Shown piece after piece: positions 735-57,206 of a stretch of 64,000 nt of DNA. This stretch comes from Sphingopyxis sp. GW247-27LB (GTDB lineage: Bacteria > Pseudomonadota > Alphaproteobacteria > Sphingomonadales > Sphingomonadaceae), in the NCBI RefSeq assembly GCF_002277025.1, contig NZ_NIWD01000015.1:62001-126000 (forward strand). The letters are read 5' to 3'. Positions within the stretch are counted from its first letter, which is position 1. Each line of letters begins with the position of its first letter. The notes beneath the pieces were generated by a model. The model searched no databases. It was not told the origin of the DNA and saw only the letters and a list, made by a program, of their open reading frames with translations. The translations under genes were made by a program, and so were the position numbers.

Positions 735-2927
735 ATGGTCAGGAAAACACGCACGCCGTCCGTCCTCTTGCTGGCGGGTTCCGCCCTCGCCGCCATGCCC
801 GGCGTGGCGCTCGCCCAGAACGCGCCCGAAGACGCCGCCGACAGCGGCGACATCATCGTCACCGCGCAGCGCCAGGAGCAACGGCTTCAGGACGTCCCGG
901 TCTCGGTCACCGCCTTCGGTGCCGAGCAGCTTCGCGACAACAGCATCGAGACGGTGCAGGACATCGCGATCCGCACCCCCGGCCTTGCGGTCAGCGCGGT
1001 CGACCCGATCAACACCAACTTCTCGATGCGCGGCATCGGCAGCGCGCCGGGGATCAGCCAGAACGCCGGCGGCGACCCCTCGGTCGTCGTCTTCGTCGAT
1101 GGTGTCTATGCGGGGCGCGGCGGCACCCCCGACCTCGACGCGCTCGACCTCGAACGCGTCGAGGTGCTGCGCGGCCCCCAAGGCACGCTGTTCGGCAAGA
1201 ATGCGATCGGCGGCCTCGTCCAGTTCATCAGCCGCAAGCCGACCGACGAGGAAAGCTTCACGTTCGAGGGCACCTACGGCAATTACGATCGCGTCGGAGT
1301 GATCGCGCGCGGCAATATGCCGCTGACCGACAAGCTGTATCTGTCGGCCGGCCTCTCGCACAAGCAGCGCGACGGCTTCGAGTATAACGAAACGACGGGC
1401 AACCGCGTCAACGACCTCAACCTGACGACGGGCCGCGTGGCGCTCCGCTTCGTGCCGACCGATACGCTCGACATCATCCTGCGCGCCGACGTCTCGCACC
1501 AGGACCAGAAGGGCAATCCGCGTCACAATAATTGCGACACGAGTTTTCAGGGCGGCATCCACTGCGTCGGCATCAATCCCGATCCGCGCGTGGTGAACGC
1601 CTATATCGATGGCGAGGTGAAGCGGACGATCCAGACCTATTCGGGCGAGGTCAATCTCGAGCTGCCGTTCGGCACGCTGACCTCGCTCACCGCGCTGCGC
1701 AAGGTGAAGTTCAACTTCGTCACCCCCTTCTTCAGCAACCCGATCAACCCGCCCGCGCAGATCGAATCGACGAGCTTCGGCGAAGAGAACAACAGCCAGT
1801 TCAGCCAGGAACTGCGCCTGTCCTTCGACGCCTGGGGCGGCCGGCTGAAGGGCCAGACCGGCCTTTATTTCCTCAAGGAGAATAACGACCGCATCGAAGG
1901 GCAGATTCAGGATTTCCCGACCCCCGCGGGTTCGGGCACCGGCATCTATCCGCAGTCGGTCAACGCCCGCAGCTTCGCGGTCTTCGGCCAGGTCGATGTC
2001 GAGATCGTGCCGTCGCTGACCGCGACCCTCGGCGCGCGCATGACCTGGGAGCGCAAGAGCGGCCGCTTCGCCGGCTTCAAGGCCGACGACGGTCCGGGCC
2101 TGCCGCCGCCGCTGGGATCGCTCGACGGCTATGACGTGACCGGCAAGAAGAGCTGGAAGGCGTTCACCCCGCGCTTCGCGCTCAACTGGAAGGCGACCGA
2201 CGACGTGCTGCTCTATGCCTCGGTCGCGCGCGGCTACAAGAGCGGCGGCTTCCAGGGGCTGTCGGGCACCGCGGAGGGCGCCTCGACCCCCTATGATCCC
2301 GAATTCGCCTGGGGCTATGAGGTGGGCGCGAAGACCGACTGGTTCGACCGCCGCCTGCGGCTCAACATCGCGGCGTTCCGCACCGACTATTCGGACCTCC
2401 AGATCTCGCAGCTCATCCCGCTGTGCTGCGTCGTCGTCAGCAACGCGGCGAAGGCGCGGATCAAGGGCGTCGAGGTCGAGGCGGTCGTCCGGCCATTCGA
2501 GGGCTTCCAGATCGACGGCAGCTACGCCTGGCTCGACGCCAAGTTCACCGAATATTCGATCCCGGGCCAGAATTACACGGGCAACCGGCTCCCGCGCTCG
2601 CCGAAGAACAAGTTCAACATCGGCGGCCAGTATGAAACCCCGCTCGGCGACCTCTCGGCGAAGCTCAGGGTCGATTACAGCTGGGTCGACGACGCCTATT
2701 TCGAGGCGTCGAACATTCCGCAGCAGCTTTGGCCCGCGCACGAAAACCTCGACGCGCGCCTGTCGCTCTCGGGTCCCGATGATCGCTGGGAACTGTCGCT
2801 GTGGGGCAAGAATCTGACTGACGAGCTGACGCCGACCTATGTCACCTATTTCGGCGCCTTCCGCCAGATCCTGACCCCTTATGCGCCACCGCGCACCTAT
2901 GGCGCGACCATCGCGTTCAAGATCTGA
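735..2927 (+). CDS. TonB-dependent outer-membrane receptor
   Basis: A 730-residue receptor with a signal peptide (about residues 1-28, ending in ALAQ), a TonB-box-like segment (DIIVTAQR), a plug domain with the VEVLRGPQGTLFGKNAIGG motif, and a beta-barrel ending in an aromatic-hydrophobic strand (IAFKI). It should import a bulky substrate across the outer membrane using TonB-ExbBD energy. I prefer ATG 735 over GTG 729, because the GGGAGAG ribosome site at 723-729 would overlap the GTG. It belongs to the large sphingomonad group often linked to aromatic or plant-derived compounds; the ligand is unknown. The next gene follows after 59 bases and is probably co-transcribed. Confidence 0.93.
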   Translation: MVRKTRTPSVLLLAGSALAAMPGVALAQNAPEDAADSGDIIVTAQRQEQRLQDVPVSVTAFGAEQLRDNSIETVQDIAIRTPGLAVSAVDPINTNFSMRGIGSAPGISQNAGGDPSVVVFVDGVYAGRGGTPDLDALDLERVEVLRGPQGTLFGKNAIGGLVQFISRKPTDEESFTFEGTYGNYDRVGVIARGNMPLTDKLYLSAGLSHKQRDGFEYNETTGNRVNDLNLTTGRVALRFVPTDTLDIILRADVSHQDQKGNPRHNNCDTSFQGGIHCVGINPDPRVVNAYIDGEVKRTIQTYSGEVNLELPFGTLTSLTALRKVKFNFVTPFFSNPINPPAQIESTSFGEENNSQFSQELRLSFDAWGGRLKGQTGLYFLKENNDRIEGQIQDFPTPAGSGTGIYPQSVNARSFAVFGQVDVEIVPSLTATLGARMTWERKSGRFAGFKADDGPGLPPPLGSLDGYDVTGKKSWKAFTPRFALNWKATDDVLLYASVARGYKSGGFQGLSGTAEGASTPYDPEFAWGYEVGAKTDWFDRRLRLNIAAFRTDYSDLQISQLIPLCCVVVSNAAKARIKGVEVEAVVRPFEGFQIDGSYAWLDAKFTEYSIPGQNYTGNRLPRSPKNKFNIGGQYETPLGDLSAKLRVDYSWVDDAYFEASNIPQQLWPAHENLDARLSLSGPDDRWELSLWGKNLTDELTPTYVTYFGAFRQILTPYAPPRTYGATIAFKI

Positions 2928-2986
2928 CTTGCCGGCGGCGGGATCGACGCCCGCCGCCGCACTATCGGCACGACGGAGAGTCCAAC

Positions 2987-3457
2987 ATGATCGAGCCCGG
3001 TTTTCGCTATCTCTGTTCCTATCGCGCGGCTTTCACCGAGCCGCAGCAACAGATCGGCAAGGCGCATTTCGGCCGCCGGATGATCGCCGCGCTGACCGGA
3101 GGCGAGGTCGAGGGCGAACGCCTCCGCGGCCGCGTGATGCCGAGCGGCGGCGACTGGGCGACGATCGACGACAATGACACGCTTCGCCTCGACGCGCGGA
3201 TCACCTTCGAAACGCACGACGGCGCGCTGATCTATGTCTCCTACCGCGGCGTGCTACGGCCGCTGACCGTCGCGCACAAGCATGCCCGCAACGGCGGCCC
3301 GAAGACCGACGCCGAAAAACGCGAAATCTATTTCCGCACCACGCCGATGTTCGAGACGGGCGACGAGCGCTATCTGTGGCTCAACGATATCGTCGCGGTC
3401 GGGCTGGGCGCGAGCGTCGGCGGCGCGGTGCGCTACGACGTGTTCGAGATCACCTGA
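2987..3457 (+). CDS. DUF3237 family protein
   Basis: A 156-residue protein that I recognise as DUF3237, a small single-domain family common beside aromatic-compound genes in sphingomonads and without an assigned reaction. Family-like segments are GDWATIDDNDTLRLDAR near residues 55-70, YVSYRGV, and a C-terminal YLWLNDIVAVGLG. No signal peptide or membrane segment is visible, so it is probably cytoplasmic. A ribosome site (GGAGAG) lies upstream of ATG. It follows the TonB receptor gene on the same strand, and its last eight bases overlap the end of the convergent MarR gene. Confidence 0.85.
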   Translation: MIEPGFRYLCSYRAAFTEPQQQIGKAHFGRRMIAALTGGEVEGERLRGRVMPSGGDWATIDDNDTLRLDARITFETHDGALIYVSYRGVLRPLTVAHKHARNGGPKTDAEKREIYFRTTPMFETGDERYLWLNDIVAVGLGASVGGAVRYDVFEIT

Positions 3458-33254: not shown

Positions 33255-35201
33255 ATGATAATGACGAATGATGACCGTTGGCGCGACCTGCGCGCACAGA
33301 TGCTGGCCTTCGTGGTCGATCGGCCGCGCATCCAACGCCAGCTCGCGGCCGTGGCGATCGATGCCTTTCTCTGCATCGCCGCCGTGTGGATCGCCTTTTC
33401 GCTTCGCCTCGGCGTTTGGGAGCTCCTGTCGCCGCCGATCGTGACCTTTGCGGCCGTGGCGTTGCTCTGCTGGTACCCCATCGCTTGGAAGACCGGCGTC
33501 TATCGCTCGCTGATCCGCTTTTCCGGCGCGCGGACGATCGCCGATCTGGCGGTCGCATGCGCGATCCTGTCGGTGCCCCTCTTCGTCGTTTGCGTCGGTT
33601 TCCGCCTCCCCTCGGTTCCGCGAACCCTCTGCGTTCTGCACCCCATCATTTTCCTTCTGCTGCTGGGGGCGAGCCGTATCGCGATCCGGTTCGTACTGCT
33701 CGACCTTTTCAAGGTCGTATCGGTGGACGTGCGCCGGGTGCTCGTTTACGGCGCCGGCCGCGCAGGGCAGCAACTCGCGCTGTCGCTCCGACACGAACCG
33801 CAAGTGTTGCTGGTCGGTTTCGTCGATGACGATCTGCGGCTCGACGGCCAGCGCCTCGACGGCGTGCCGGTCTTCGGCGCCAATCGCCTGGAGGAGATAC
33901 TCGCCGATACCGACATCGACGAGGTGCTGCTCGCAATCCCCAGCGCATCCCGTGCCCGTCGGCGCGAAATCATCGAAACGTTGCAGGACGAGGAAGTCTT
34001 CGTCCGCTCGCTCCCCAATCTGACCGGCATCATCGAGGGGTCGGTCACGGTCAACGATCTGCGCGAAATCCAGATCGAAGAGCTGCTCGGCCGCGAAACC
34101 GTCGCGGCGAACGAGTTGCTGATGAGCAAGACGACCGCCGGAAAGATCGTCCTCGTCTCGGGCGCCGGCGGTTCCATCGGCAGCGAGTTGTGCCGCCAGA
34201 TCGTCCGGTGCCGACCGGCGCGCCTCGTCCTTCTCGAACAATCCGAATATGCGCTTTACGCGATCGAGCAGGAACTGACCGAGCTTATGCGCGAGCTCGA
34301 GGTCGAGGTGCCACTCGTCCTCGAACTGGCGAGCGCGTCGGAGCGCTCGTCGATGAACCGCATCTATCATCATCATCGGCCGGAGACGGTGTTCCACGCG
34401 GCCGCTTACAAGCATGTGCCGCTGGTCGAGGCGAACCCCATCTCGGGCCTTCGCAACAACATCATGAGCACGCTCCACAGCGTTGCCGCCGCAGAGGCGG
34501 TGGGCGTCGCCAACTTCATCCTGATCAGCACCGACAAGGCCGTGCGCCCGACCAACGTCATGGGCGCCTCGAAGCGCGTGTGCGAGCTGATCCTGCAGGC
34601 GCGCGCCGAACGGCCCGACGTGAAGACGGTCTTCAGCATGGTCCGTTTTGGCAATGTTCTGGGATCGAGCGGCTCGGTCGTCCCGCGCTTCAAGGCGCAG
34701 ATCGAGGCCGGCGGTCCCGTCACGCTGACCCACCGCGAGATCACGCGATATTTCATGACCATCCCCGAAGCCGCGCAGCTCGTGATCCAGGCGAGCGCGA
34801 TGGCGAAGGGCGGCGAAGTATTCGTGCTCGACATGGGCCAACCCGTGAAAATCTTCGACCTCGCGACCAGCATGATCCACCTGTCGGGGCTGAGCGTGCG
34901 CTCGGCCGAGAATCCCGATGGGGATATTCAGATTGTCGAGACGGGGCTTCGTCCCGGCGAGAAGCTCTATGAGGAGCTGCTGATCGGCGATAATCCAGAA
35001 GAAACCAAGCATCCGCGGATCATGCGCGCGCGCGAAGGACTCTGGCATTGGGACGATCTCGACCGCGAATTGCAGGAATTGGACGCAACTATCCGCGTCA
35101 GCGGCGACAGCGCCGCGGCGGTGGCGATCGTCACCCGGCTGGTTCCCGAATTCGTCCCCGATGCGGGGTGGGCCGAGCGACTGAATGCCGGTAACGGCTA
35201 G
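33255..35201 (+). CDS. Membrane UDP-sugar 4,6-dehydratase (CapD/WbpM/PglF family)
   Basis: A 648-residue protein. It has four N-terminal transmembrane helices (about residues 25-150), a Rossmann CoA-binding-like domain (VLVYGAGRAGQQLA near residue 157), and a SDR dehydratase domain (VLVSGAGGSIGSELC near residue 300, with MxxxK in VMGASK near residue 438). Enzymes of this length convert UDP-GlcNAc to UDP-2-acetamido-4-keto-6-deoxy-D-glucose, the precursor of QuiNAc, FucNAc, bacillosamine and related sugars. It is followed by a reductase-phosphoglycosyltransferase fusion that could use its product. ATG 33255 lacks a strong ribosome site; ATG 33261 is an alternative. Confidence 0.92.
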   Translation: MIMTNDDRWRDLRAQMLAFVVDRPRIQRQLAAVAIDAFLCIAAVWIAFSLRLGVWELLSPPIVTFAAVALLCWYPIAWKTGVYRSLIRFSGARTIADLAVACAILSVPLFVVCVGFRLPSVPRTLCVLHPIIFLLLLGASRIAIRFVLLDLFKVVSVDVRRVLVYGAGRAGQQLALSLRHEPQVLLVGFVDDDLRLDGQRLDGVPVFGANRLEEILADTDIDEVLLAIPSASRARRREIIETLQDEEVFVRSLPNLTGIIEGSVTVNDLREIQIEELLGRETVAANELLMSKTTAGKIVLVSGAGGSIGSELCRQIVRCRPARLVLLEQSEYALYAIEQELTELMRELEVEVPLVLELASASERSSMNRIYHHHRPETVFHAAAYKHVPLVEANPISGLRNNIMSTLHSVAAAEAVGVANFILISTDKAVRPTNVMGASKRVCELILQARAERPDVKTVFSMVRFGNVLGSSGSVVPRFKAQIEAGGPVTLTHREITRYFMTIPEAAQLVIQASAMAKGGEVFVLDMGQPVKIFDLATSMIHLSGLSVRSAENPDGDIQIVETGLRPGEKLYEELLIGDNPEETKHPRIMRAREGLWHWDDLDRELQELDATIRVSGDSAAAVAIVTRLVPEFVPDAGWAERLNAGNG

Positions 35202-35299
35202 CGATCCGAAGCCGATATTCACGTTGACACCATTCCGCCCTGCTGGTTGGTCGCGCGCGACCCCAAGCAACGCCGCGACCACATATCTGAAACGACCCC

Positions 35300-36538
35300 A
35301 TGACTTCTGAGCGATCCCATCACTATGACTTCATCGTGACCGGCGCATCGGGCAACGTGGGCCGCCACCTCGTTCCCCTGCTCGCAAGCCGCGGCAGCCG
35401 GATCCTGGCGGTGGGCCGCGATGCCGCGCCGCTGCGGGCACGCTATGCCGGCATCGCCGGCGTCGATGCCGCCAGCTACGACGAGCTCGCGGGCCAGCCG
35501 GCGTGCGACACCTTGGTTCATCTCGCGGTTCGCAACAACAACCAGCCGGGATCGCTCGACGACTTCACGCGCGTCAACGTCGATTTCGCCACGGAAATCT
35601 GCGGCGAGTTCAACCGCATGGGCGGACGGCGTTTCGTCAATATCTCGTCGATCCAGTCGCTCGACGACGACAATGCCTCCCCCTATGCGGTGAGCAAGGA
35701 TCTGGCGCGGCGCCGGATCGCCGAGCTGGTCGGCGACCGGCTCGACGATGTTCACATCGGCTATTTCCACGATGCGCGCTATTTCGGGGAAAGGCTGGCC
35801 TTCCTGAACCGCCTTGGAGCCTTCGGCGGCGCCCTCTTCGGCCTGTTCAAGACGCTGAAGCCCGCCACCTCGGCCAAGAGCCTCGCCGATTATGTTGCGG
35901 GTCCCGCCCGCGCGTTGCCGACCCCCGCCATCCTGACCGACGACCTGTCGCGATCATGGGTCTATCGCTCGGCGACGCGCGCGCTCGACATCGCGGTCGC
36001 GCTCGGCATCCTGGTCGTGCTGTTTCCCATCCTCGTCGTCCTGTGGGCGCTGATCCGGCTCGACAGCCCGGGTCCGGCCATCTTCGCGCAGACGCGCGTG
36101 GGCAAGGGACAGGTCCCCTTCACCCTCTACAAGTTCCGCACGATGAAGCGCGACACCGTCGCCGCCGGGACGCACGAGGTAAGCGTCAGCGCGGTGACCA
36201 AGATCGGCAAGTTCCTGCGCGGCACCAAGCTCGATGAATTGCCGCAGGCGATCAATCTGCTGCGCGGCGAAATGACGCTCGTCGGCCCCCGTCCGTGCCT
36301 GCCGGTGCAGGAGGAGCTCGTGAACGCGCGCGCGGCGCTCGGCGTCTATGCGATGAAACCGGGCATCACCGGTTATGCGCAGATCCGCGAGATCGACATG
36401 AGCCGTCCGCAAGAACTGGCGAACAGCGATCATATCTACATGAAACTGCAATCGCTGACGCTCAACTTCAAGATCATCCTGCTGACCGCCTTCGGCCGCG
36501 GCGGGGGCGACCGGGTCGCGGCGCCCGGGCAACCGTAG
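35300..36538 (+). CDS. SDR reductase/epimerase fused to a monotopic phosphoglycosyltransferase
   Basis: A 412-residue two-domain protein. Residues 10-215 form an extended-SDR-like domain with TGASGNVG (14-21), NISS (114-117) and YAVSK (Tyr129, Lys133), so the catalytic residues are present. Residues 225-405 are a PglC-type phosphoglycosyltransferase: a re-entrant hydrophobic helix, KFRTMK (278-283), the catalytic pair in KLDELPQ (Asp312, Glu313), and GPRP (329-332). The second half should transfer a sugar-1-phosphate from UDP-sugar to undecaprenyl phosphate and start the repeat unit. The first half probably reduces the 4-keto sugar made by the upstream CapD-like enzyme. The fusion has no frameshift or stop between domains. 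Confidence 0.9.
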   Translation: MTSERSHHYDFIVTGASGNVGRHLVPLLASRGSRILAVGRDAAPLRARYAGIAGVDAASYDELAGQPACDTLVHLAVRNNNQPGSLDDFTRVNVDFATEICGEFNRMGGRRFVNISSIQSLDDDNASPYAVSKDLARRRIAELVGDRLDDVHIGYFHDARYFGERLAFLNRLGAFGGALFGLFKTLKPATSAKSLADYVAGPARALPTPAILTDDLSRSWVYRSATRALDIAVALGILVVLFPILVVLWALIRLDSPGPAIFAQTRVGKGQVPFTLYKFRTMKRDTVAAGTHEVSVSAVTKIGKFLRGTKLDELPQAINLLRGEMTLVGPRPCLPVQEELVNARAALGVYAMKPGITGYAQIREIDMSRPQELANSDHIYMKLQSLTLNFKIILLTAFGRGGGDRVAAPGQP

Positions 36539-36554
36539 GAACAACAGGGATTTC

Positions 36555-37703
36555 ATGCAGGACAGGCAAAAGAGCATCCTATTTTTCGTCGGCGACGCGG
36601 GCTTCTTCGTCTCGCACCGGCTGAACCTCGTCGCGGGGGCGCTGCGGGACGGCTACCGCGTCACCGTCGCCTGCCCCCGTTCGGCAGCGGTGGACACGAT
36701 CCGCGCGAACGGCGCGGACTGGGTCGAATGGAAGGTCGATCGCGGCGGCACGGCGATCTTCGGGGAATTGCTGTCACTGCTGCGCGCCTTTTCGATCGTC
36801 CGGCGCGTCGCCCCGACGGTGATCCACGCGATCTCGATCAAATGTATTCTCCATGCCGGCCTTGCGTCGAAATTCCTGCGCGTCCCGATCGTCGGAGCGG
36901 TTTCGGGCCTCGGCTATGTCTACATCGGCGACGGCGGCGGCATGAAGGGCGTGCTGCGCCGCGTGATCAATGCGGTCATGAACTTCGGACTCAACCGGCG
37001 CGACGTCAGCTTCATTTTCCAGAATGGAGACGATGCGCGAATGATCGAATTCGCCGGGCTCGACCGGGTGTCGGTCCACCGCATCGGCGGATCGGGCGTC
37101 GACCTGAACCGGATCACGATGCAACCGCATCCACCGGGCCCCGAAACGCGCGTCGGCCTTCCCGCGCGGCTGCTGCGGGTGAAGGGCGTTTATGAATTCG
37201 TCGAGGCCGCGCGCGAACTTCGCGGACGGCGCGGACGCGACGCCAAATTCCTGCTGATCGGCGATCCCGATCTTTCCAACCCTTCGTCGATCACGCCCGC
37301 CGAGATCGAAGCCTGGACCGCCGAGGGGGTGGTCGAATGGGTGCCGCACACCCCCGATGTCGCCTCCGTCCTCGCGACGCTGCACATCGTCGCCCTGCCC
37401 GCCGACCGCGAGGGGTTTCCGAAGACGCTGATCGACGCGGCCGCCGCCGGCCGCGCGGCGGTGACCAGCGACGTGCCGGGATGCCGCGATGCGATCGCGG
37501 AGGGCGTGACGGGCCTGCTATGCCCGGTGCGCAATGCCCTCGCCCTCGCCGACACGCTCGACCGGCTGATCGTGGACCGCGATCTGTGCGTTCGCATGGG
37601 CATCGCGGCGCGCGCCTATGCCGAAGAGAATTTCGACATCGACGATGTCACGCGGCGCCATATCGAAATCTATCGCGAACGCATCGACGCCGCCGCGGCC
37701 TGA
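36555..37703 (+). CDS. Glycosyltransferase family 4 protein (PglA-like)
   Basis: A 382-residue GT-B enzyme. The N-half begins ILFFVGDAGFFVSHRLNL and has the acceptor-region GAVSGLGYVYIG; the donor half has ARLLRVKGVYEFVEAA and the GT4 motif region PADREGFPKTLIDAAAAGRA, where Glu residues bind the nucleotide sugar. PglA-like enzymes add the second sugar to undecaprenyl-PP-linked QuiNAc or bacillosamine. It lies 16 bases after the phosphoglycosyltransferase gene, in agreement with acting second. It converges with the MurJ-like gene, leaving 16 bases between the stops. Confidence 0.88.
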   Translation: MQDRQKSILFFVGDAGFFVSHRLNLVAGALRDGYRVTVACPRSAAVDTIRANGADWVEWKVDRGGTAIFGELLSLLRAFSIVRRVAPTVIHAISIKCILHAGLASKFLRVPIVGAVSGLGYVYIGDGGGMKGVLRRVINAVMNFGLNRRDVSFIFQNGDDARMIEFAGLDRVSVHRIGGSGVDLNRITMQPHPPGPETRVGLPARLLRVKGVYEFVEAARELRGRRGRDAKFLLIGDPDLSNPSSITPAEIEAWTAEGVVEWVPHTPDVASVLATLHIVALPADREGFPKTLIDAAAAGRAAVTSDVPGCRDAIAEGVTGLLCPVRNALALADTLDRLIVDRDLCVRMGIAARAYAEENFDIDDVTRRHIEIYRERIDAAAA

Positions 37704-37719: not shown

Positions 37720-39264
37720 TCAGGCCACCGGCATCGACGGATCGATCCCCTCTTCGGGCTTCGCGTGCGCGCCGCGCAAATGCGAATAGAGGGTCGCGGG
37801 GGTCACCCCGCCCAGCCAGAGCAGGCCGATCAGCAGCGGGACATAGACCGCCATCGTCAAGGCCCCCGCCGCGATCAGGCGCGGGAACAGCGGCCAGCCA
37901 GCGATCAGGTCATAGCCCAGGGCCGTGGCGCCGAATGCCGCGGCGCCGGCAAGGATCGCGGCGACGAAATAAGCGGCCAGATGGCGCGTCAGCAATCGCC
38001 GTTTCCACACCAGTAGCACCCCGATCTGCCCGATGCAGAAGGATAGCGCGCCGATCGACGCGCCGGCCGCGATCCCCTCTATCCCATAGGTTCGCGACAG
38101 CCAGAGGCTGCTGACCAGATTGATCGCGGTCGCGGCGATCCCGATCAGGAGCGGCGCCATCGTCTTTTGATAGGAGAAGAATACGCGGTTCAGCAATTCG
38201 CGCACCGCGGCAAAGATGATCCCGAAGCCGAGGATCCCGAACAGCGCCGCCGTGGCGTGCACATCGTCCCATTCAAAGGCGCCGCGGTGATAGATCAGCG
38301 CGACGACGTCGGTGCGCAGCGCCAGCGCCGCCGCCGCCGCCGGCGCCGTGGTGACCAGGATCAGCCCGATCGCGCGCGTCAGCGTCTGCGCGTTCGCCGC
38401 GTCATCGTCGCGCGCGGCATTGTGCGCGAGGTCGGGAAAGAACATGTAGGCGACCAGCCACGAGAAGGTGCCCGAGATCAGCAGCGTCAGCCGGTTGGCG
38501 TAATTGAGATGCGAAATCGCCCCCGCGCCGAAATCGGACGCGATCGCGGTGCCGATGAACAGGTTGAACTGGTCGAGGATCACCGCGAAGATCATCGGCG
38601 CCGACAAGAGCGACAGCCGCCGCCACGTCTCGGGGCGGACCGCCCAGCCCCATTGGCTATCATAAATCCGGCGCGTCTGACCGCGCTGGATCACCGCTTG
38701 GACCAGATAGGCACCGACCGCGCCGACGATAGCGATCGTCACATCGTTCATGAAATAGGCGGCAACGATCGCCCCGACCGCGATCAGATTGTTGATTACG
38801 GGTACAGCGAGCGGCGGGATGAAATAACGGTTCGCCTGTTGCAAGGCGCTCTGGACGCCGACGTAACCGGTAAGCAGAAAGCCCAGCGCCATGATGCGCG
38901 TGAGTTTGACCGCCAGATCATGCGTATAGGCGTCGATGGATGGCGCTACGATCGACACGAGGGGTCCGGCCAAGGCCCAGCAGAGGGCCGTCAGCAGAAT
39001 GGCGACATAGGCATAATAGCGGATCGCCTCGTTGACGAATTGCTGCCCCGCCCCCCGATCTGCCATCACCCGAACATACATCGGGGCGAAAACCGATCCG
39101 ATCGTCCCGTAGATCGCGAGCCAGATCACTCCCGGCAATTGATTGGCGATGAAGTAGGCGTCCGTAACCGGACTGACGCCAAAGAGCGATGCGAAGACGA
39201 CATCCTTGACCAGCGCAGCGATTTTTCCGGCGATAGTCAGCAGGATCAGGATGACAACGGTCAT
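37720..39264 (-). CDS. MurJ/MviN-like lipid-linked oligosaccharide flippase
   Basis: A 514-residue polytopic protein of the MOP superfamily with about 14 helices. It opens with [29 protein letters not shown], a MurJ-type helix 1-2 region, and shows [16 protein letters not shown] in the second half. In a polysaccharide locus with a Wzy-like polymerase and no other Wzx, it most likely flips the lipid-linked repeat unit across the inner membrane. A role in peptidoglycan lipid II flipping is less likely from context. Its ATG overlaps the stop of the polymerase gene (ATGA). Confidence 0.85.
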
Positions 39265-40631
39265 ATGGCGCGCGGCGCCACCCGTCGTCGCGCGGGCTCC
39301 GCCCACGAAATCCCCGTCCTGTTGTAACGGCGCCCGATCGACAGATAGAGGGTCGTAATCACGATCATGGTGAACAGCCCGCCCGGCGAATGGAGCAGCT
39401 GGTTGTTCGCCGGCATGAAGAATGCGCCCATCGTCAACTGGGCGAACAGCAGAATGGCGAAAGGATTTTCAAAGCGGATCGCCGCGCGCCATGCACGGGC
39501 GTAGACATATGCGAAAAAGCCGAACAGCACGACCGTGCCGGGAAAGGTGAAGTCGGTCGCGAAATGGGTGAAGACCGTATGCCATTTCGATTCACCCCAC
39601 CCCGTCGTTACCCCAACCTGATGGACGAGCGTGTTGGGCCATTCCCACTCCACCCCGAGCACGCGGTTGGCGAGGACCGAAATCGAATAGGAAAAGCCCT
39701 GAAAATAAGTCCAATGCCAAGGCATATCGAGAGCCAACCCGAGCCCGTAATAGCCCTGGGAAAGATAGCTGAGGAACATCGATAAATTCAGCCCGTAATC
39801 CTGCCCGAATATGGCGAAGATGGGATGGCTGGTGTCGATGAAAACACGGTCCAGAACCCGCTGATTCACGTTGGCGACGTCGACTCCCAGCGCGCTGTAG
39901 CGCTGGCCCAGCACCGCTACGAAGGCCAGCAGGCCCACAATGCCCAGTCCGACGATGCTGACCACCCATTTCAGCTGGATCGGCTTACGGCGCACCCCAT
40001 ATTTCAGCGCGGCAACAGTAAGCAAATAGATCAGGATGTCGCCGAGCTGCTTCTGCTTTCCGGAACCGAGAACATAGAAAAGCAGACTTACGATTGCAAA
40101 TGCAGCAACCAAAAATCTCCGAACGTTTCCGAATACAGAGAAATAATAAAATCCCAAGATTAAGGCAATGAAATTGAAAGGAAGGGAGAAGGAATATATA
40201 ATAAATACTATAGAGTAGTTTCCAGTATTTCGCTCATATCCTTCATAGCCCGCCATATAGGCATCGCCGATGGCGGAAAAATCGGTGTTCAACTGGCCAG
40301 AAGACGCCGCACTGGCGATGGACGCGATCAGCGAGAGCAGCGAGATGGCCAACGAGAGATCGAAAAGCTGGCGAACGAAAATGCTGCTTCCTGGTCGGTT
40401 CTTATACGGCATCGGCAATTGGGTCGCAGCGCCGTACAGATAGCCGAAGGTGATCGCCACCATCACGGCCGTCATGAACAGGACCGTCTTGCCGATCGGG
40501 AACATGTAATATTTCGTCGGCCCCCACACCGCGAGCGCGAGCGTGACCGCAAGATAGATCAGGAAAAATTTCAGCGGCGCGTAGGTCGCGAAGAGCGCCG
40601 CCGGCCGCCGGGCAGGTCTCGCCATATTCAC
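39261..40631 (-). CDS. Wzy-like repeat-unit polymerase (polytopic membrane protein)
   Basis: A protein of about 456 residues with roughly 11 hydrophobic helices, long periplasmic loops (around [12 protein letters not shown] and [13 protein letters not shown]) and no enzymatic signature, typical of oligosaccharide repeat-unit polymerases. It should join flipped repeat units on the periplasmic side. The start is GTG 40631, overlapping the previous stop as GTGA, or ATG 40625. The part near 40020-40260 is strikingly AT-rich compared with the window, as is usual for horizontally exchanged polymerase genes. The family call rests on topology and position. Confidence 0.75.
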
Positions 40632-42396: not shown

Positions 42397-43524
42397 TCAG
42401 CCCTTTTTCCACACGGTGCGATTGACGTAGCCGGTGTAGCTCATGACCGCGCGCAGGATCTTTCGCGACACGTTGGGTACATTGTAATCGGCCACCACCT
42501 CGAACTGCCGTTCCTCCGCGTTGTGCTGCGCGGTGACGACGCGGATCGAATCGAGGATGTCGTCGCGCTTCAGGCCGGTCATGATCAGCGTGCCGACGTC
42601 CATCCCCTCGGGCCGCTCGTGCGCGTTGCGCAGCGTGATCGCGGGAAGGTTGAGCAGGCTCGCCTCTTCGGAGATGGTGCCGCTGTCCGACAGGACGCAG
42701 AACGCAGATTTCTGCAGCTTCACATAGTCGAAGAAACCCATCGGCGCCTGATAGCGCACGCGCGGATCGACCGGCGCATTGGCCAGATCGGCGATGCGCT
42801 TCTGCGTGCGCGGATGGGTCGACACGATCACCGGCATGTCGAACTCCTCGGCCGCGGCCGACAGGCCCTGCATCAGCTGCTCCAGGTTGCGCGGATCGTC
42901 GACATTCTCCTCGCGGTGGACGCTCGCGATGAAATATTTTCCGGCCTCCAGCCCCTCGCGCGCCAGCACGTCCGACGCGTCGATCTCGGCGGCGAAATGG
43001 TCGAGCACCTCGCGCATATGACTGCCCGACTTGATGATCGTCTCGGGGCGGATGCCCTCGGCGATCAGGTAGCGGCGGCCATGCTCGGTCAGCACGAAAT
43101 TGATGTCGCTCAAATGGTCGAGCACCTTGCGGTTGAGTTCCTCGGGGACGCGCTGGTCGAAGCAGCGGTTGCCCGCCTCCATGTGGAATACCGGGATCTG
43201 GCGGCGCTTCGCGGGGATCACCGCGAGGCAGCTGTTGGTATCGCCATAGAGGAGCACCGCGTCGGGCTTTTCGAGCTCGAGCACGTCGTCGACCTTCGAG
43301 ATCACCTCGGCGATCGTCTTCGCGGCGTTGGCGCCTGCGGCGTTCAGGAAGTGGTCGGGCTTGCGGATGCCCAGATTGTCGAAGAAAACCTGGTTGAGCT
43401 CATAGTCGTAATTCTGGCCGGTGTGGACCAGCACATGGTTCACATGCGCCTCGAACTCTGCGATCACGCGGCACATCTTGATGATTTCGGGGCGCGTCCC
43501 GACGATCGTCATCACCTTCATCAT
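42397..43524 (-). CDS. UDP-N-acetyl sugar 2-epimerase (FnlC/WbjD/WbvD-like)
   Basis: A 375-residue non-hydrolysing 2-epimerase of the WecB superfamily: TIVGTRPEIIKM at the N-terminus, HTGQNYDYELNQVFF, HMEAGNRCFDQRVPEE, SVHREENVDD, SDSGTISEEA. The sequences HTGQNYD and GNRCFDQRVPEE are those of the FnlC/Cap5G branch, which inverts C2 of UDP-2-acetamido-2,6-dideoxy-L-hexoses, rather than of WecB. It lies immediately after the RmlD-like gene (one base between) and completes the L-sugar pathway begun by the gene at 44450-45484. Confidence 0.9.
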   Translation of the reverse strand: MMKVMTIVGTRPEIIKMCRVIAEFEAHVNHVLVHTGQNYDYELNQVFFDNLGIRKPDHFLNAAGANAAKTIAEVISKVDDVLELEKPDAVLLYGDTNSCLAVIPAKRRQIPVFHMEAGNRCFDQRVPEELNRKVLDHLSDINFVLTEHGRRYLIAEGIRPETIIKSGSHMREVLDHFAAEIDASDVLAREGLEAGKYFIASVHREENVDDPRNLEQLMQGLSAAAEEFDMPVIVSTHPRTQKRIADLANAPVDPRVRYQAPMGFFDYVKLQKSAFCVLSDSGTISEEASLLNLPAITLRNAHERPEGMDVGTLIMTGLKRDDILDSIRVVTAQHNAEERQFEVVADYNVPNVSRKILRAVMSYTGYVNRTVWKKG

Positions 43525-43525
43525 A

Positions 43526-44401
43526 TTATCGGCTTTCGATCCTGCTGCGCTTCATGGTCTCGACCAGGTCGGGCCACGAAGGCGGGGTGTATCCGGTGGC
43601 CGCGCGGAAGCGGTCCGAGTTGAGCGAGCGGTCGATGACCAGCGAGGCATCGGGCTCGATCGCGATGTCATGGCCATAGGCGGCGCCGACGAGGCGCAGC
43701 AGGTCATATTTGGCGATCGGGTCGACCGAGACATGGTAGAGGCCGGTCAGTTCGGGGCGCGGCAGCACGAAGTCGCGCACGACGCGCGCCAGCTCGACCG
43801 TCGGCAGGCCCGAGAAGATCGCCTTGGTGAAGCCCTTGATCCCCTGCTTCTGCGCCAGGAACCATTCGACCAGCCCGTTCGCCGACGCGAGTTCGTGCCC
43901 GATGATCGACGTGCGCAGCGTCACCGCGTTCGGCGCCGCGACCTCGCCCAGATATTTGCTGAGCCCATAGACGTCGGTGGCGTCGGCCTTATCGGTTTCC
44001 AGATAGCCACCTTTCGCGCCCGAAAAGACGCAGTCGGTGCTGACATGGACCAACCGCGCGCCCGCGATCTCGGCGAGCTTTTGCAGCCGGTGCGGCAGCA
44101 GCGTGTTGATCGGCACCGCCGACGTCACCGCATTGCCGCTCGCGAGCTGCTTGATCAGCCCGACCGCGTTGATCACGACATCGGGCCGCGCTTCGGCAAA
44201 GACGCGCGCCAGGCTATCGCTGCTCTCGGCATCCAGGCCGACAACGAAGCTCGCTTCGCCGGCGATCTTTTCGAGCCGCGGACTGACCGAACGCACCGCA
44301 CCGATCGCCGCATAGCCCTCCGACTGCGCGAAGGTCCGCAGCATCGCGGTACCCAGCATCCCGCTGGCGCCCAGCACCAGGACCCGAACTGGTTCAGCCA
44401 A
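43526..44401 (-). CDS. RmlD-like NDP-sugar 4-reductase (WbvR-type)
   Basis: A 291-residue SDR of the dTDP-4-dehydrorhamnose reductase family: VLVLGASGMLGTAM (residues 7-20), VSTDCVFSGAKGGY near residue 118, and YGLSK as the YxxxK catalytic pair. It lacks the C-terminal cupin found in FnlB/Cap5F of the UDP-L-FucNAc pathway and has the size of WbvR of Vibrio cholerae O37, which makes UDP-L-RhaNAc. It probably reduces the 4-keto-L sugar made by the neighbouring dehydratase. The start is TTG 44401, supported by GAAGGAGA eight bases upstream; no ATG is near. Confidence 0.87.
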   Translation of the reverse strand: MAEPVRVLVLGASGMLGTAMLRTFAQSEGYAAIGAVRSVSPRLEKIAGEASFVVGLDAESSDSLARVFAEARPDVVINAVGLIKQLASGNAVTSAVPINTLLPHRLQKLAEIAGARLVHVSTDCVFSGAKGGYLETDKADATDVYGLSKYLGEVAAPNAVTLRTSIIGHELASANGLVEWFLAQKQGIKGFTKAIFSGLPTVELARVVRDFVLPRPELTGLYHVSVDPIAKYDLLRLVGAAYGHDIAIEPDASLVIDRSLNSDRFRAATGYTPPSWPDLVETMKRSRIESR

Positions 44402-44449
44402 GAACCGTCTCCTTCAACCCGTTCGCCCCGGATCGCCCGAGGCCGAAAT

Positions 44450-45484
44450 TCAACCGCGCGGCCAGCCCTCGAGCTCCGCCTGCACCTCGGGAAGGCTGAG
44501 CAGCAGCCGCTTCACTCCTTCGACGTCGAGCCGCTCGGTGTTGTGCGAATGATAGTCGTCCATCGTCGCGGTCGTCGTCTCGCCCTCGCTGAAATAGGCG
44601 GCATAGTTGAGATCGCGGTCGTCGAGCCGCAGTCGCCAATAATCGCCCATATCCTCCGCGGTGCCCAGTTCCTGTGCGCTCGCGAGCGTTTCGTAGAGCT
44701 TCTCGGCGTGGCGCCAGCCGATCGCCTGCACCGGATGGTCGGGCGACCCGAACATCTCGACCAGCGCGGTCGCAAGATCGGCGATCGTCGACGCCGCAGC
44801 CTTCTTGATGAACAGATCGCCCTGCCGTGCGTGCAGGAAGGCGAAACGCACCAGCGCGACGCTGTCGCGCAGCGGCATCAGAAAGCGCGTCATATTGGGC
44901 TCGGTCACCGTGATCGGCTGGCCGTTCTTGATCTGGCGGATGAAGAGCGGGATCACCGATCCGCGCGAGCACATGACGTTGCCATAGCGCACGCAGCTGA
45001 TCGTCGTGGCGGCATTGGCGCCGATTTCGCGCGAGGCGGCCTGCGCCATCTTCTCCATCATCGCCTTCGACATGCCCATCGCGTTGATCGGCTGCACCGC
45101 CTTGTCGGTCGACAGGCAGACGAGGCTGCCGACGTCATGCTCGATCGACGCACGAATGACATTCTCCGATCCGACGATGTTGGTCCGCACCGCCTCCATC
45201 GGAAAGAATTCGCAGCTCGGCACCTGCTTGAGCGCGGCGGCATGGAAGACCGCGTCGACGCCCTTCACCGCACGCGAGACGCTCTCACGGTCGCGGACGT
45301 CGCCGACGAAGAAGCGCGCGCGCGTATCGCCAAGAATATTGCGCAGCGCATCCTGCTTCTCCTCGTCGCGGCTGAGGATGCGAACCTCTTCGATATCGCC
45401 GGCGAGCAGTTCGTTCACCATCGTCTTGCCGAACGAACCGGTGCCGCCGGTGATCAGGACGCGCTTAATCTCTCTTGCGCTCAT
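44450..45484 (-). CDS. UDP-GlcNAc 4,6-dehydratase, 5-epimerising (FnlA/WbjB/CapE family)
   Basis: A 344-residue soluble SDR with VLITGGTGSFGKTM (residues 9-22), HAAALKQVPSCEFFPMEA near residue 95, and MGMSK in place of YxxxK, as is typical for inverting dehydratases. It converts UDP-GlcNAc to UDP-2-acetamido-2,6-dideoxy-beta-L-arabino-4-hexulose, the entry point of UDP-L-FucNAc, UDP-L-RhaNAc and UDP-L-QuiNAc. It is followed by a 4-reductase and a 2-epimerase gene in pathway order. GGGAAGG precedes ATG 45484. Confidence 0.92.
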   Translation of the reverse strand: MSAREIKRVLITGGTGSFGKTMVNELLAGDIEEVRILSRDEEKQDALRNILGDTRARFFVGDVRDRESVSRAVKGVDAVFHAAALKQVPSCEFFPMEAVRTNIVGSENVIRASIEHDVGSLVCLSTDKAVQPINAMGMSKAMMEKMAQAASREIGANAATTISCVRYGNVMCSRGSVIPLFIRQIKNGQPITVTEPNMTRFLMPLRDSVALVRFAFLHARQGDLFIKKAAASTIADLATALVEMFGSPDHPVQAIGWRHAEKLYETLASAQELGTAEDMGDYWRLRLDDRDLNYAAYFSEGETTTATMDDYHSHNTERLDVEGVKRLLLSLPEVQAELEGWPRG

Positions 45485-54805: not shown

Positions 54806-55921
54806 ATGAAAATCATGACGGTTTTCGGGACACGCCCGGAAGCGATCAAAATGTTTCCCGTCATCCACGCGCTGCGACGTCAGGATGGCGTAGATGCGCG
54901 CGTCTGCGTGACCGCGCAGCATCGCGAGATGCTCGATCAGGTCCTGCACATCGCGCGTATCGCTCCCGACATCGATCTCGACGTCATGCGGGCGAACCAG
55001 ACACTCGACGCGCTGCTGGCACGGCTGGTGACCGGGCTCGGCGAAACCTTCGACGCCGAAAGGCCCGACCGCATCCTCGTCCACGGCGATACGCTGACGA
55101 CGATGGCGGCGACGCTCGCCGCCTATTTCCGCAAGATTCCCGTCGGCCATGTCGAGGCGGGATTGCGCAGCGGGAACATCTATCACCCCTGGCCGGAGGA
55201 AGTGAACCGCAAGGTCACCGGCGCCGTCGCCGATCTGCACTTCGCGCCTACCGACACCGCCGCCGCCGCGCTGAGGGCCGAGAATGTTGCCGCCGACCGC
55301 ATTCATGTCACCGGCAACACCGTGATCGACGCGCTGCTTGCCACCAAGGCGCGCATCGACGAGGAGCCCGCGCTCGCCGCGGGGCTAGACCCGCTGATCG
55401 CGCGCTTTGCCGGCAAACGGATCATCGCGGTCACCTCGCACCGGCGCGAGAATTTCGGGGACGGCATGAAGGCGATCGCCGAAGCCATCGCGGCGATCGC
55501 GGCGCGAAGCGACGTCGCGGTCGTCTTTCCCGTCCATCCCAATCCGCACGTGCGCAGCGCGATGGAGCCGATCCTCGGCGCCCTCACCAACGTCGCGCTG
55601 ATCGACCCGCTCGACTATCCGCATTTCGTGCGCCTGCTCGCCGAATGCGACCTCGTGCTGACCGACAGCGGCGGCGTGCAGGAGGAAGCGCCGTCGCTCG
55701 GCAAGCCCGTGCTCGTGATGCGCGAGACGACCGAGCGGCCCGAAGGCATCGCCGCCGGGACCGCCCGGCTGGTCGGCACCGACAGGGACCATATCGTTTC
55801 CGAAATCTTCAGCCTTTTGGATGATGGTGCCGCCTACAACGCCATGGCCCGCGCCCATAATCCGTTCGGCGACGGGACCGCAGGCGTCCAGATTGCGGAG
55901 ATTGTCGCGCGTGGCCGTTGA
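54806..55921 (+). CDS. wecB: UDP-N-acetylglucosamine 2-epimerase (non-hydrolysing)
   Basis: A 371-residue WecB: TVFGTRPEAIKMFPVI at the N-terminus, VTAQHREMLDQVL, HGDTLTTMAATLAAYF, HVEAGLRSGNIYHPWPEE, SHRRENFGD and LTDSGGVQEEAPSLGKPVL. It interconverts UDP-GlcNAc and UDP-ManNAc in the cytoplasm. The next gene overlaps it by 11 bases and encodes the dehydrogenase using its product, so the pair makes UDP-ManNAcA. It differs clearly from the FnlC-like epimerase at 42397-43524 in active-site phrases. Confidence 0.94.
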   Translation: MKIMTVFGTRPEAIKMFPVIHALRRQDGVDARVCVTAQHREMLDQVLHIARIAPDIDLDVMRANQTLDALLARLVTGLGETFDAERPDRILVHGDTLTTMAATLAAYFRKIPVGHVEAGLRSGNIYHPWPEEVNRKVTGAVADLHFAPTDTAAAALRAENVAADRIHVTGNTVIDALLATKARIDEEPALAAGLDPLIARFAGKRIIAVTSHRRENFGDGMKAIAEAIAAIAARSDVAVVFPVHPNPHVRSAMEPILGALTNVALIDPLDYPHFVRLLAECDLVLTDSGGVQEEAPSLGKPVLVMRETTERPEGIAAGTARLVGTDRDHIVSEIFSLLDDGAAYNAMARAHNPFGDGTAGVQIAEIVARGR

Positions 55922-57206
55922 TATCGAACAGAAAGTTACCGTCGTTGGCCTCGGCTATATCGGCCTGCCGACCGCGGCGTTGATCGCCCGCTCGGGCTGC
56001 AAGGTCACCGGTATCGACGTCAGCGCGAAGGTCGTCGAAACCGTCAACAACGGCAAGGTGCATATCGAGGAGGTCGACCTCGACGGGCTGGTGCAGGGCG
56101 TCGTCGCACGCGGCACGCTTGTCGCCTCGACCGCGATGGTCGCCGCCGACAGCTTCGTCATCGCGGTGCCGACGCCGCACGACGCCGAGCATCGCCCCGA
56201 CATCAGCTTCGTCCTCGACGCCGCACGCGCCATCGCGCCGGTGCTGGAGGCGGGCAACCTCGTCATCCTCGAATCGACCTCGCCGGTGGGCACGACCGAG
56301 AAGGTCGCCGAACTGATCGCCGACCTGCGCCCCGACCTCCGCGTGCCCGGCCGCTGCAGCGGCGCGGCGGACATTTTCATCGCCTATTGCCCCGAGCGCG
56401 TGTTGCCGGGACGCATCCTCGTCGAACTGGTCGACAACGATCGCTGCATCGGCGGCATCACCCCGCGCTGCGCGCGCCGCGCGATGACTTTCTATCGCCA
56501 GTTCGTGCGGGGCGCCTGCGTCACGACGACGGCGCGCGCCGCCGAAATGGTGAAGCTGGTCGAGAACAGCTACCGCGACGTCAACATCGCCTTCGCCAAC
56601 GAACTCTCGATGATGGCCGAAGCGCTAGGGGTCGACGTGTGGGAGGTGATCCGCCTCGCCAACCGCCACCCGCGCGTGAATATCCTCCAGCCGGGGCCCG
56701 GCGTCGGCGGCCATTGCATCGCGGTCGACCCCTGGTTTCTCGTCCACGGCGCGCCCGAACACAGCCGGCTGATCCGCACCGCGCGCGAGGTGAATATCGC
56801 CAAGACCGCGCATGTCATCGGGGCAGCGGAAATGCTGGTATCGCAGCACCCCAAGGCGCGCGTCGCGTGCCTGGGTCTCGCTTTCAAGCCCAACATCGAC
56901 GATTTTCGCGAAAGCCCCGCGGTCGAGGTCGCCGCCGCTCTGGCGCGACGCTTCGGCTCGCAGATCGACATCGTCGAGCCCTATGCGCGCGGTCTGCCGA
57001 TGGAATTCGCGGGCACCGGCGCGCGGCTGATCGACCTCGACAGCGCGCTTGCCGAATGCGAATTGCTGATCGTCCTCGTCGACCACGACCTGTTCAAATC
57101 GATCCCGCTCGAGGAGCGCGCCGACAAGATCGTCTACGACACGCGCGGGTTGTGGCTCGACCAGCCGAGCGGCGGGCACGGCAATCGCCTCCACCGGGCA
57201 GCCTGA
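55911..57206 (+). CDS. wecC: UDP-N-acetyl-D-mannosamine dehydrogenase
   Basis: A 431-residue UDP-sugar 6-dehydrogenase: VTVVGLGYIGLPTAALIA, AVPTPHD, ESTSPVGTTEK, YCPERVLPGRIL, and the catalytic Cys in GVGGHCIAVDPWFLV. The PERVLPG and PWFLV phrases are typical of WecC. It makes UDP-ManNAcA with two NAD+. The start is GTG 55911 with GGAG ten bases upstream, overlapping wecB by 11 bases. The sugar is used in many capsules and in enterobacterial common antigen; here it probably feeds the nearby locus. Confidence 0.93.
   Translation: MAVDIEQKVTVVGLGYIGLPTAALIARSGCKVTGIDVSAKVVETVNNGKVHIEEVDLDGLVQGVVARGTLVASTAMVAADSFVIAVPTPHDAEHRPDISFVLDAARAIAPVLEAGNLVILESTSPVGTTEKVAELIADLRPDLRVPGRCSGAADIFIAYCPERVLPGRILVELVDNDRCIGGITPRCARRAMTFYRQFVRGACVTTTARAAEMVKLVENSYRDVNIAFANELSMMAEALGVDVWEVIRLANRHPRVNILQPGPGVGGHCIAVDPWFLVHGAPEHSRLIRTAREVNIAKTAHVIGAAEMLVSQHPKARVACLGLAFKPNIDDFRESPAVEVAAALARRFGSQIDIVEPYARGLPMEFAGTGARLIDLDSALAECELLIVLVDHDLFKSIPLEERADKIVYDTRGLWLDQPSGGHGNRLHRAA

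What the first reader, a model, noticed from the sequence alone, without database searches (positions are those of the whole stretch)
33255..36538. Reductase fused to a phosphoglycosyltransferase next to its likely dehydratase
The SDR half (TGASGNVG, YAVSK) and the PglC-type half (DE pair at 312-313) form one 412-residue chain, directly after a CapD/WbpM dehydratase gene. In Rhizobium etli, as I recall, the 4-keto sugar phosphate is first moved to the lipid carrier by WreU and only then reduced by WreQ. A fusion of both activities would fit channelling of the keto sugar to D-QuiNAc or D-FucNAc on the lipid.
Basis: partly seen in the sequence, partly recalled or inferred. Interest (0 to 1): 0.65.

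Follow-up and report, generated by a model that had tools for sequence, protein, structure and literature searches.

The report
Shortened reductase fused to sugar-lipid transferase
A bacterial gene joins a cut-down sugar reductase to the enzyme that loads the first sugar onto a membrane lipid, next to the gene that makes the keto sugar both would handle; it is a rare, compact version of a pairing already known as neighbouring genes and as a longer fusion.

Summary
In detail: window 35300-36538 encodes one 412-residue chain, SDR half plus monotopic phosphoglycosyltransferase (PGT), 98 nt after a WbpM/CapD-type dehydratase. It is no singleton: counting the window I found 19 fusions of this design in alphaproteobacteria. 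It is rare: 9 of 396 genomes of the order, 8 of 80 of the genus, own included.

New point: the SDR half is truncated. It matches WbpV-type reductases over profile columns 2-233 of 326, yet keeps its glycine motif (19 of 19) and Ser/Thr-Tyr-Lys (18 of 19), with dN/dS well below 1. Relatives have a full-length SDR gene beside the PGT or a full-length fusion, which RefSeq already names [quoted passage not shown].

[quoted passage not shown] the fusion transfers it to the lipid and reduces it to QuiNAc or FucNAc. Reduction after transfer is inferred, not shown. One member lost Tyr and Lys but kept the SDR half, so a structural role is not excluded. New variant of a known kind.

The parts
33255..35201 (+). 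WbpM/CapD/PglF-type (long, membrane-anchored) nucleotide-sugar 4,6-dehydratase, 648 aa; STDKA at 425, NVMGASK at 434-440 (Met in the usual Tyr place)
   Evidence: Pfam PF13727 and PF02719 E 2.3e-117; motifs; 48% identity over 637 columns to the R. etli p42b dehydratase
35300..36538 (+). the fusion gene, 412 aa
35300..35944 (+). SDR half, residues 1-215: WbpV-type Rossmann domain without its C-terminal ~90 residues
   Evidence: hhalign probability 99.88, template columns 2-233 of 326; Pfam
35339..35362 (+). TGASGNVG nucleotide-binding motif, residues 14-21
   Evidence: the three glycines in 19 of 19 members
35648..35650 (+). catalytic Ser/Thr position, S117
   Evidence: S or T in 19 of 19; catalytic role recalled from SDR knowledge
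35684..35698 (+). YAVSK (YxxxK), residues 129-133
   Evidence: Y and K in 18 of 19; L024 has Q and E
35954..36538 (+). monotopic PGT half, residues 219-412; membrane helix region 220-255
   Evidence: Bac_transf 227-397; PglC structure 8e37 Z 17.9, rmsd 3.1, 173 aligned, model 218-400; helices 220-240 and 242-255
36233..36238 (+). D312-E313 pair of the PGT
   Evidence: 18 of 18 members whose PGT half is complete in the alignment; catalytic role recalled
36555..37703 (+). GT4 glycosyltransferase, next gene; likely adds the second sugar (inferred)
   Evidence: Pfam; a relative follows the fusion in 6 of the 18 others: G035, G004, G012, L023, L028 and, at 31% identity, L103

Best explanation
The fusion is the initiating enzyme of a Wzx/Wzy-type polysaccharide. 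[quoted passage not shown] the PGT half moves the sugar phosphate onto undecaprenyl phosphate; the SDR half, on the cytoplasmic side at the membrane, reduces the 4-keto group with NADPH, giving Und-PP-D-QuiNAc or Und-PP-D-FucNAc for the next gene's glycosyltransferase. Shown here: the gene, domains, conserved catalytic residues, truncation, neighbours. Inferred: the reaction, NADPH (from the Arg after beta-2), and that reduction follows transfer (from the loss of the SDR's C-terminal part, which in UDP-sugar SDRs helps hold the nucleotide, as recalled, and from the R. etli precedent).
For: Domains and motifs. Homology of the SDR halves to WbpV-type full-length SDRs, probability 99.88, E 2.4e-32 in that pairwise comparison. 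Ser/Thr-Tyr-Lys in 18 of 19; Arg after beta-2 in 18 of 19. Purifying selection on the SDR half: dN/dS 0.10-0.24 in the ten closer of 13 pairs, PGT half 0.06-0.21, dS near saturation. Dehydratase gene next upstream on the same strand in 9 of 19 (window, G004, G012, G003, G184, L024, L028, L039, L103), and within about 11 kb on the same contig in 11 of 12 other fusion genomes searched whole. Unfused relatives with SDR, PGT and dehydratase together: Devosia plasmid (SDR and PGT overlap by 4 nt), G002 of the same genus; 8 of 8 loci fetched from the phylum search have SDR then PGT as separate genes on one strand, 7 of 8 with a dehydratase in the 6 kb shown. P. aeruginosa plasmid pHOU1-1 has an SDR, a gene annotated 'glycosyltransferase family 4' (which I take, from recall, for a WbpL-type polytopic PGT) and a long dehydratase in a row. 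B. cereus Preq, a 4-reductase of unrelated sequence, needs NADPH (PMC4514872 passages).
Against: L024 (Sphingopyxis panaciterrae) lost Tyr, Lys and the Arg after beta-2, yet keeps the SDR half (dN/dS to the window 0.14) and a dehydratase 89% identical to the window's, so the half can matter without this chemistry. Five of 19 members lack a loop that the others have. The dehydratase is common in the genus anyway: 58 of 80 genomes, 8 of 8 with the fusion against 50 of 72 without (Fisher p 0.099). 7 of 19 fusion loci show no long dehydratase in the stretch fetched. Another reductase elsewhere in the genome is not excluded, nor are the six weak DegT-family hits as aminotransferases. Full-length 4-reductases such as Preq act on the UDP-linked sugar (PMC4514872), so the order is not forced. 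I found no assay of an enzyme of this design.
Confidence: 0.6

Rival explanations
1. [quoted passage not shown]
For: Preq makes UDP-QuiNAc, and the paper states that R. etli has the same two activities (PMC4514872 passages). Same domains and neighbours fit.
Against: The C-terminal part of the SDR, which helps hold the nucleotide in UDP-sugar SDRs (recalled), is missing in 19 of 19. In a wreQ mutant QuiNAc is replaced by 4-keto derivatives (PMC4514872), so transfer does not wait for reduction there.
Confidence: 0.22
2. The SDR half is no longer an enzyme but a sensor or scaffold (nucleotide-binding or dimer-forming), like the DUF of large PGTs for which a regulatory role through UMP was proposed.
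For: Truncation; L024 without Tyr and Lys but under constraint; regulatory DUF in WbaP (PMC10942596 passages).
Against: Ser/Thr-Tyr-Lys kept in 18 of 19 although SDR-half identity is only 31-36% in the three distant pairs measured; a mere binder would not need the triad. Unfused neighbours are full-length SDRs.
Confidence: 0.2
3. The SDR half is a 4-epimerase on the lipid-linked sugar (like Gnu, which acts on GlcNAc-PP-Und; recalled).
For: Same superfamily; SDRs acting on polyprenyl-PP sugars are known (recalled).
Against: Arg after beta-2 in 18 of 19 points to NADP(H) rather than tightly bound NAD (rule recalled); dehydratase next door.
Confidence: 0.08

Closest known systems
'hybrid nucleoside-diphosphate sugar epimerase/sugar transferase' (RefSeq product name), Deinococcus ficus pDFI2 WP_027462200.1; same architecture in L035, a Desulfuromonadaceae MAG
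   Same: SDR at the N-terminus, monotopic PGT at the C-terminus
   Different: 522 and 518 aa with an SDR of full length; here 412 aa, SDR without its last ~90 residues
WbpV/WreQ-type 4-reductases (P. aeruginosa O6, R. etli; names and reaction from PMC4514872 passages)
   Same: SDR-half homology to a profile of WbpV-like SDRs; dehydratase partner
   Different: Separate, full-length proteins; the P. aeruginosa pHOU1-1 SDR used here has 318 aa and my calling it WbpV-like rests on context. The WreQ sequence itself was not compared
WreU and WreV candidates on R. etli CFN 42 p42b (277-843 and 967-3018; gene names recalled)
   Same: PGT half 41% identical over 174 columns, dehydratase 48% over 637
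   Different: The p42b PGT is a stand-alone 188-aa protein with no SDR gene in the 15 kb shown (the stretch before the record's start was not seen); other side of a 100/100 branch in the PGT tree
Bifunctional monotopic PGTs (Bi-PGTs)
   Same: Functional domain fused to the PGT core, as defined in PMC10942596 (passages)
   Different: The survey that lists the fusion partners (O'Toole 2021; recalled) is not held, so whether this variant was listed is open
Large PGTs (WbaP, WcaJ)
   Same: PGT core; top row of the structural list is WbaP, Z 20.6 but rmsd 13.1
   Different: No CoA_binding_3 match in the fusion and no helix bundle before the PGT in the model

Membership tests
Monotopic PGT (Bac_transf) | Bac_transf domain over the curated cut-off | tested here: met
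   163.3 bits, cut-off 27
Monotopic PGT (Bac_transf) | Asp-Glu catalytic pair | tested here: met
   D312-E313, 18 of 18 members; role recalled
Monotopic PGT (Bac_transf) | Transfer of sugar phosphate to polyprenyl phosphate | not testable with these tools
   needs an assay
Extended SDR, WbpV/WreQ type | TGxxGxxG, Ser/Thr, YxxxK | tested here: met
   glycines 19 of 19, Ser/Thr 19 of 19, Tyr and Lys 18 of 19
Extended SDR, WbpV/WreQ type | Full-length chain with C-terminal substrate domain | tested here: not met
   alignment ends at template column 233 of 326
Extended SDR, WbpV/WreQ type | 4-keto reduction of 6-deoxy-HexNAc | not testable with these tools
   needs an assay
Bifunctional PGT (Bi-PGT) | Functional domain fused to either end of the PGT core | tested here: met
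   SDR domain fused, its activity untested; definition from PMC10942596
RefSeq 'hybrid epimerase/sugar transferase' | SDR plus PGT in one chain | tested here: met
   but the Sulfitobacter member of the window's design is named only 'sugar transferase'
Large PGT (WbaP/WcaJ) | N-terminal helix bundle and CoA_binding_3 domain | tested here: not met
   no CoA_binding_3 match at E 0.01 in the 412-aa chain; the dehydratase has one
WreU orthologue | PGT in the clade of the p42b PGT | tested here: not met
   separated by a branch supported 100/100 in the 40-row tree; that the p42b gene is WreU is recalled

The most novel reading that the evidence does not exclude
A composite reductase: the SDR half lost the part that closes over a UDP-sugar, and the PGT half takes its place, so that the keto sugar is reduced only once it is on (or being put on) the lipid carrier. 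Transfer and reduction would be one channelled step with no free UDP-QuiNAc. Slight structural hint: many solved extended SDRs align to the model with an end point at residues 378-385, inside the PGT half; only end points are given and some classical SDRs end there too, so this may be one chance helix.
Probability: 0.33. Interest if true: 0.7.

Novelty: new variant of a known kind. Interest (0 to 1): 0.48.

Why it matters
Whether keto sugars are reduced before or after loading on the lipid carrier decides which lipid-linked starter a cell makes. A reductase that keeps its catalytic triad but has shed its C-terminal part, held to the transferase in one chain, makes that order testable in one protein. 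L024, which lost Tyr and Lys in nature, is a ready-made comparison: its polysaccharide should start with the unreduced keto sugar if the SDR half is the only reductase.

Tried and rejected
Artefact or frame error: rejected, same fusion in 18 other genomes or records. A unique protein: rejected. PGT made separately from an inner start: unlikely; the only ATG/GTG/TTG in codons 196-235 is TTG206. Dehydratase enrichment at genome level: not significant (p 0.099). Single origin of the fusion: PGT trees leave the backbone open; one clade for the 19 fused rows is not rejected (p-AU 0.459), which does not prove it. L024 SDR half decaying fast: not seen (SDR branch 0.53, as for L023). A second dedicated WbpV-type reductase in the own genome: inconclusive; best 101 bits on contig C14, and the 12 other fusion genomes searched have best hits of 82-121 bits, so perhaps a housekeeping SDR; the 401-bit hit in G002 is a row of the query itself. 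Census figures are lower bounds: the limits (E 1e-60, 1e-55) miss distant fusions such as L039, and in the order and class searches only up to 4 candidates per genome were scored. My thought that G1056 and G1140 are full-length fusions was dropped: separate ORFs. Viral contigs: 7 relatives, all matching from query residue 217 or later, so PGT half only. Foldseek and VIA list no fused SDR-PGT structure among the rows shown; absence shows nothing. Ten literature searches, the cap, listed no title that I could recognise as describing this truncated variant; apart from passages of three papers I saw listings only, and most subscription papers are missing.

L031 is taken as the PGT half of L039 (same MAG, both at contig ends; inferred). 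L029 was used without its first two residues. In the dN/dS test 3 of 13 pairs were too distant to use.
Full report
Observation. ORF 35300-36538 on the + strand is one 412-residue chain. Pfam finds Epimerase at 12-126 and Bac_transf at 227-397. The gene upstream is a long dehydratase with CoA_binding_3 and Polysacc_synt_2 domains and Met in the usual Tyr place of YxxxK (NVMGASK), as recalled for WbpM-type enzymes. It ends 98 nt before the fusion; a GT4 gene starts 16 nt after it.

Genome context. The window lies in a genome of 4.79 Mb. Its genus group holds the records of Sphingopyxis jiangsuensis and S. panaciterrae (contig length or position agree), so the genus is probably Sphingopyxis. The surroundings are a polysaccharide cluster: a MurJ-family flippase, a match below cut-off to an oligosaccharide polymerase, an acetyltransferase and several GTs; a set like UDP-L-FucNAc synthesis, a UDP-sugar dehydrogenase and epimerase, a Wzc-like chain-length protein, an export protein, an O-antigen-ligase-like protein, and a UDP-GlcNAc 2-epimerase plus dehydrogenase pair. 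None of the 30 ORFs scanned with Pfam in the window matched DegT.

Relatives. Full-length matches came from genomes near the window, named genome contigs and one plasmid, Sulfitobacter pontiacus. With the order search I count 19 fusions of the window's design: the window, G035, G004, G012, G021, G003, L023 to L029, L103, G413, G184, G264, G394 and L039, which a contig end cuts. They lie in Sphingomonadales and in Aliihoeflea, a Rhizobiaceae MAG, Brevirhabdus and Sulfitobacter. Frequency, own genome included: 9 of 396 genomes of the order at E 1e-60, 8 of 80 of the genus at the same limit, and 1 of 385, the own one, in a class-wide sample at E 1e-55. These are lower bounds.

The truncation. In the alignment of 15 fusions, 14 jump from the end of the SDR core (ILTDD in the window) to the PGT; only L035 carries extra residues there. 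A profile of the 19 SDR halves aligns to a profile of seven full-length SDRs at 99.88% probability over template columns 2-233 of 326 and then stops. I chose the full-length set: L035, a P. aeruginosa plasmid SDR (47% identical to L035's), D. ficus, Devosia, G002, L030 and L047. Pfam likewise covers half of Epimerase in the window half (2-124 of 240) and most of it in the four full-length SDRs scanned, L035, Devosia, G002 and L030.

Is the short SDR kept for catalysis? The glycines are in 19 of 19, Ser or Thr at S117 in 19 of 19, Tyr129 and Lys133 in 18 of 19, Arg after beta-2 in 18 of 19. A basic residue at window R165 is in the 14 members that keep that loop, where four of five full-length SDRs in that alignment have Asn; five members lack the loop. 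The exception for Tyr, Lys and Arg is L024, with Gln and Glu for Tyr and Lys and an intact PGT motif. dN/dS in the SDR half is 0.10-0.24 in the ten closer pairs and 0.06-0.21 in the PGT half; three further pairs were too distant to use (0.52 and 0.54 for one, saturated for two). dS is near saturation, so these are rough. L024 against the window gives 0.14. So the half is kept wherever tested, and its chemistry probably in 18 of 19.

Where it came from. In Devosia neptuniae p_unnamed1 the order is dehydratase, full-length SDR, PGT, the last two overlapping by 4 nt. In G002 of the window's genus, SDR, PGT and dehydratase follow one another. The 8 loci fetched after the phylum search all have SDR then PGT as separate genes, 7 of 8 with a dehydratase in the 6 kb shown; they are six top hits and two that I suspected of being fusions, out of 64 of 398 genomes with a match, so not a random sample. 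SDR and PGT are also one chain of full length in L035 and in D. ficus, the latter named 'hybrid nucleoside-diphosphate sugar epimerase/sugar transferase'. In the PGT trees the fused rows fall with unfused PGTs in a group with an open backbone; holding the 19 fused rows together costs 0.67 log units, p-AU 0.459. A single fusion with loss of the SDR tail is possible but not proven.

Structure. With 26 sequences AlphaFold2 gives mean pLDDT 88.4 and pTM 0.83. The PGT half matches PglC (Z 17.9, rmsd 3.1, 173 aligned), and many SDRs align at Z about 16-17. Extended SDRs often have an end point at 378-385, inside the PGT half, but so do some classical ones, and the tool warns that ranges give end points only; I treat this as a hint.

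Mechanism. The dehydratase product can be aminated or reduced (established sugar pathways). I see no convincing DegT aminotransferase: six hits on other contigs, each covering 66-128 of 360 positions, over Pfam's cut-off of 19.8 but at most 37.1 bits. Reduction is therefore likely, and the SDR half is the candidate next to the dehydratase. A second reductase elsewhere is not excluded. Order: the missing C-terminal part helps to hold the nucleotide in UDP-sugar SDRs (recalled, e.g. GalE), so its loss fits a lipid-linked substrate. In an R. etli wreQ mutant QuiNAc is replaced by 4-keto derivatives (PMC4514872 passages), which shows that keto sugar can be loaded unreduced.

Dehydratase link. Next upstream on the same strand in 9 of 19. 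In G035 a 617-aa dehydratase ORF ends about 1 kb upstream, and an ORF nearer the fusion ends with what matches the last 37 residues of the window's dehydratase, so an insertion may have split the gene. Near but on the other strand in G394 and G413; not seen in the stretch fetched for L023, L025, L026, L027, L029, G021 and G264. In the 12 other fusion genomes searched whole, 12 of 12 have a long one, 11 within about 11 kb on the same contig, G021 on another contig. As 58 of 80 genomes of the genus have one anyway, presence alone says little; closeness is the evidence.

Verdict. Observation confirmed. Interpretation partly supported and sharpened: a rare, compact variant of a known SDR-PGT pairing, with a truncated SDR whose catalytic residues are mostly kept. 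The kind is known; the truncated form I did not find described in ten searches of an open-licence library. Papers: PMC10942596, PMC4514872 and PMC11340318 seen as passages, the last without bearing on the fusion; all others as search listings only; O'Toole 2021 and the R. etli order-of-steps work recalled.

Noticed in passing
window 42397-45484 (-): Three genes that look like UDP-L-FucNAc synthesis (2-epimerase, RmlD-type reductase, Polysacc_synt_2 with its C-terminal domain). P. aeruginosa pHOU1-1 and D. ficus pDFI2 have a similarly annotated set beside their SDR.
   Followed up: partly
window 37720-39306 (-): The flippase of the polysaccharide cluster scores as MurJ (Pfam E 2.7e-59; NCBIfam 212.5 bits, just under the 235.55 cut-off).
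   Followed up: no
L024 6001-7215: The Sphingopyxis panaciterrae fusion lost Tyr, Lys and the Arg after beta-2 of the SDR half while the PGT motif and the dehydratase next door are kept: possibly a natural reductase-dead form.
   Followed up: partly
L026 3723-5666: A 647-aa ORF upstream of the Aliihoeflea fusion whose residues 273-639 match the window's GT4; another domain seems fused in front.
   Followed up: no
window 54806-57206 (+): UDP-GlcNAc 2-epimerase and UDP-sugar dehydrogenase in a row, as for ManNAcA synthesis.
   Followed up: no
L004 2-1390 (L122 6404-9298): In G035 the dehydratase next to the fusion looks split near its 3' end: one ORF matches up to residue 614, another further on matches residues 612-648.
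   Followed up: no
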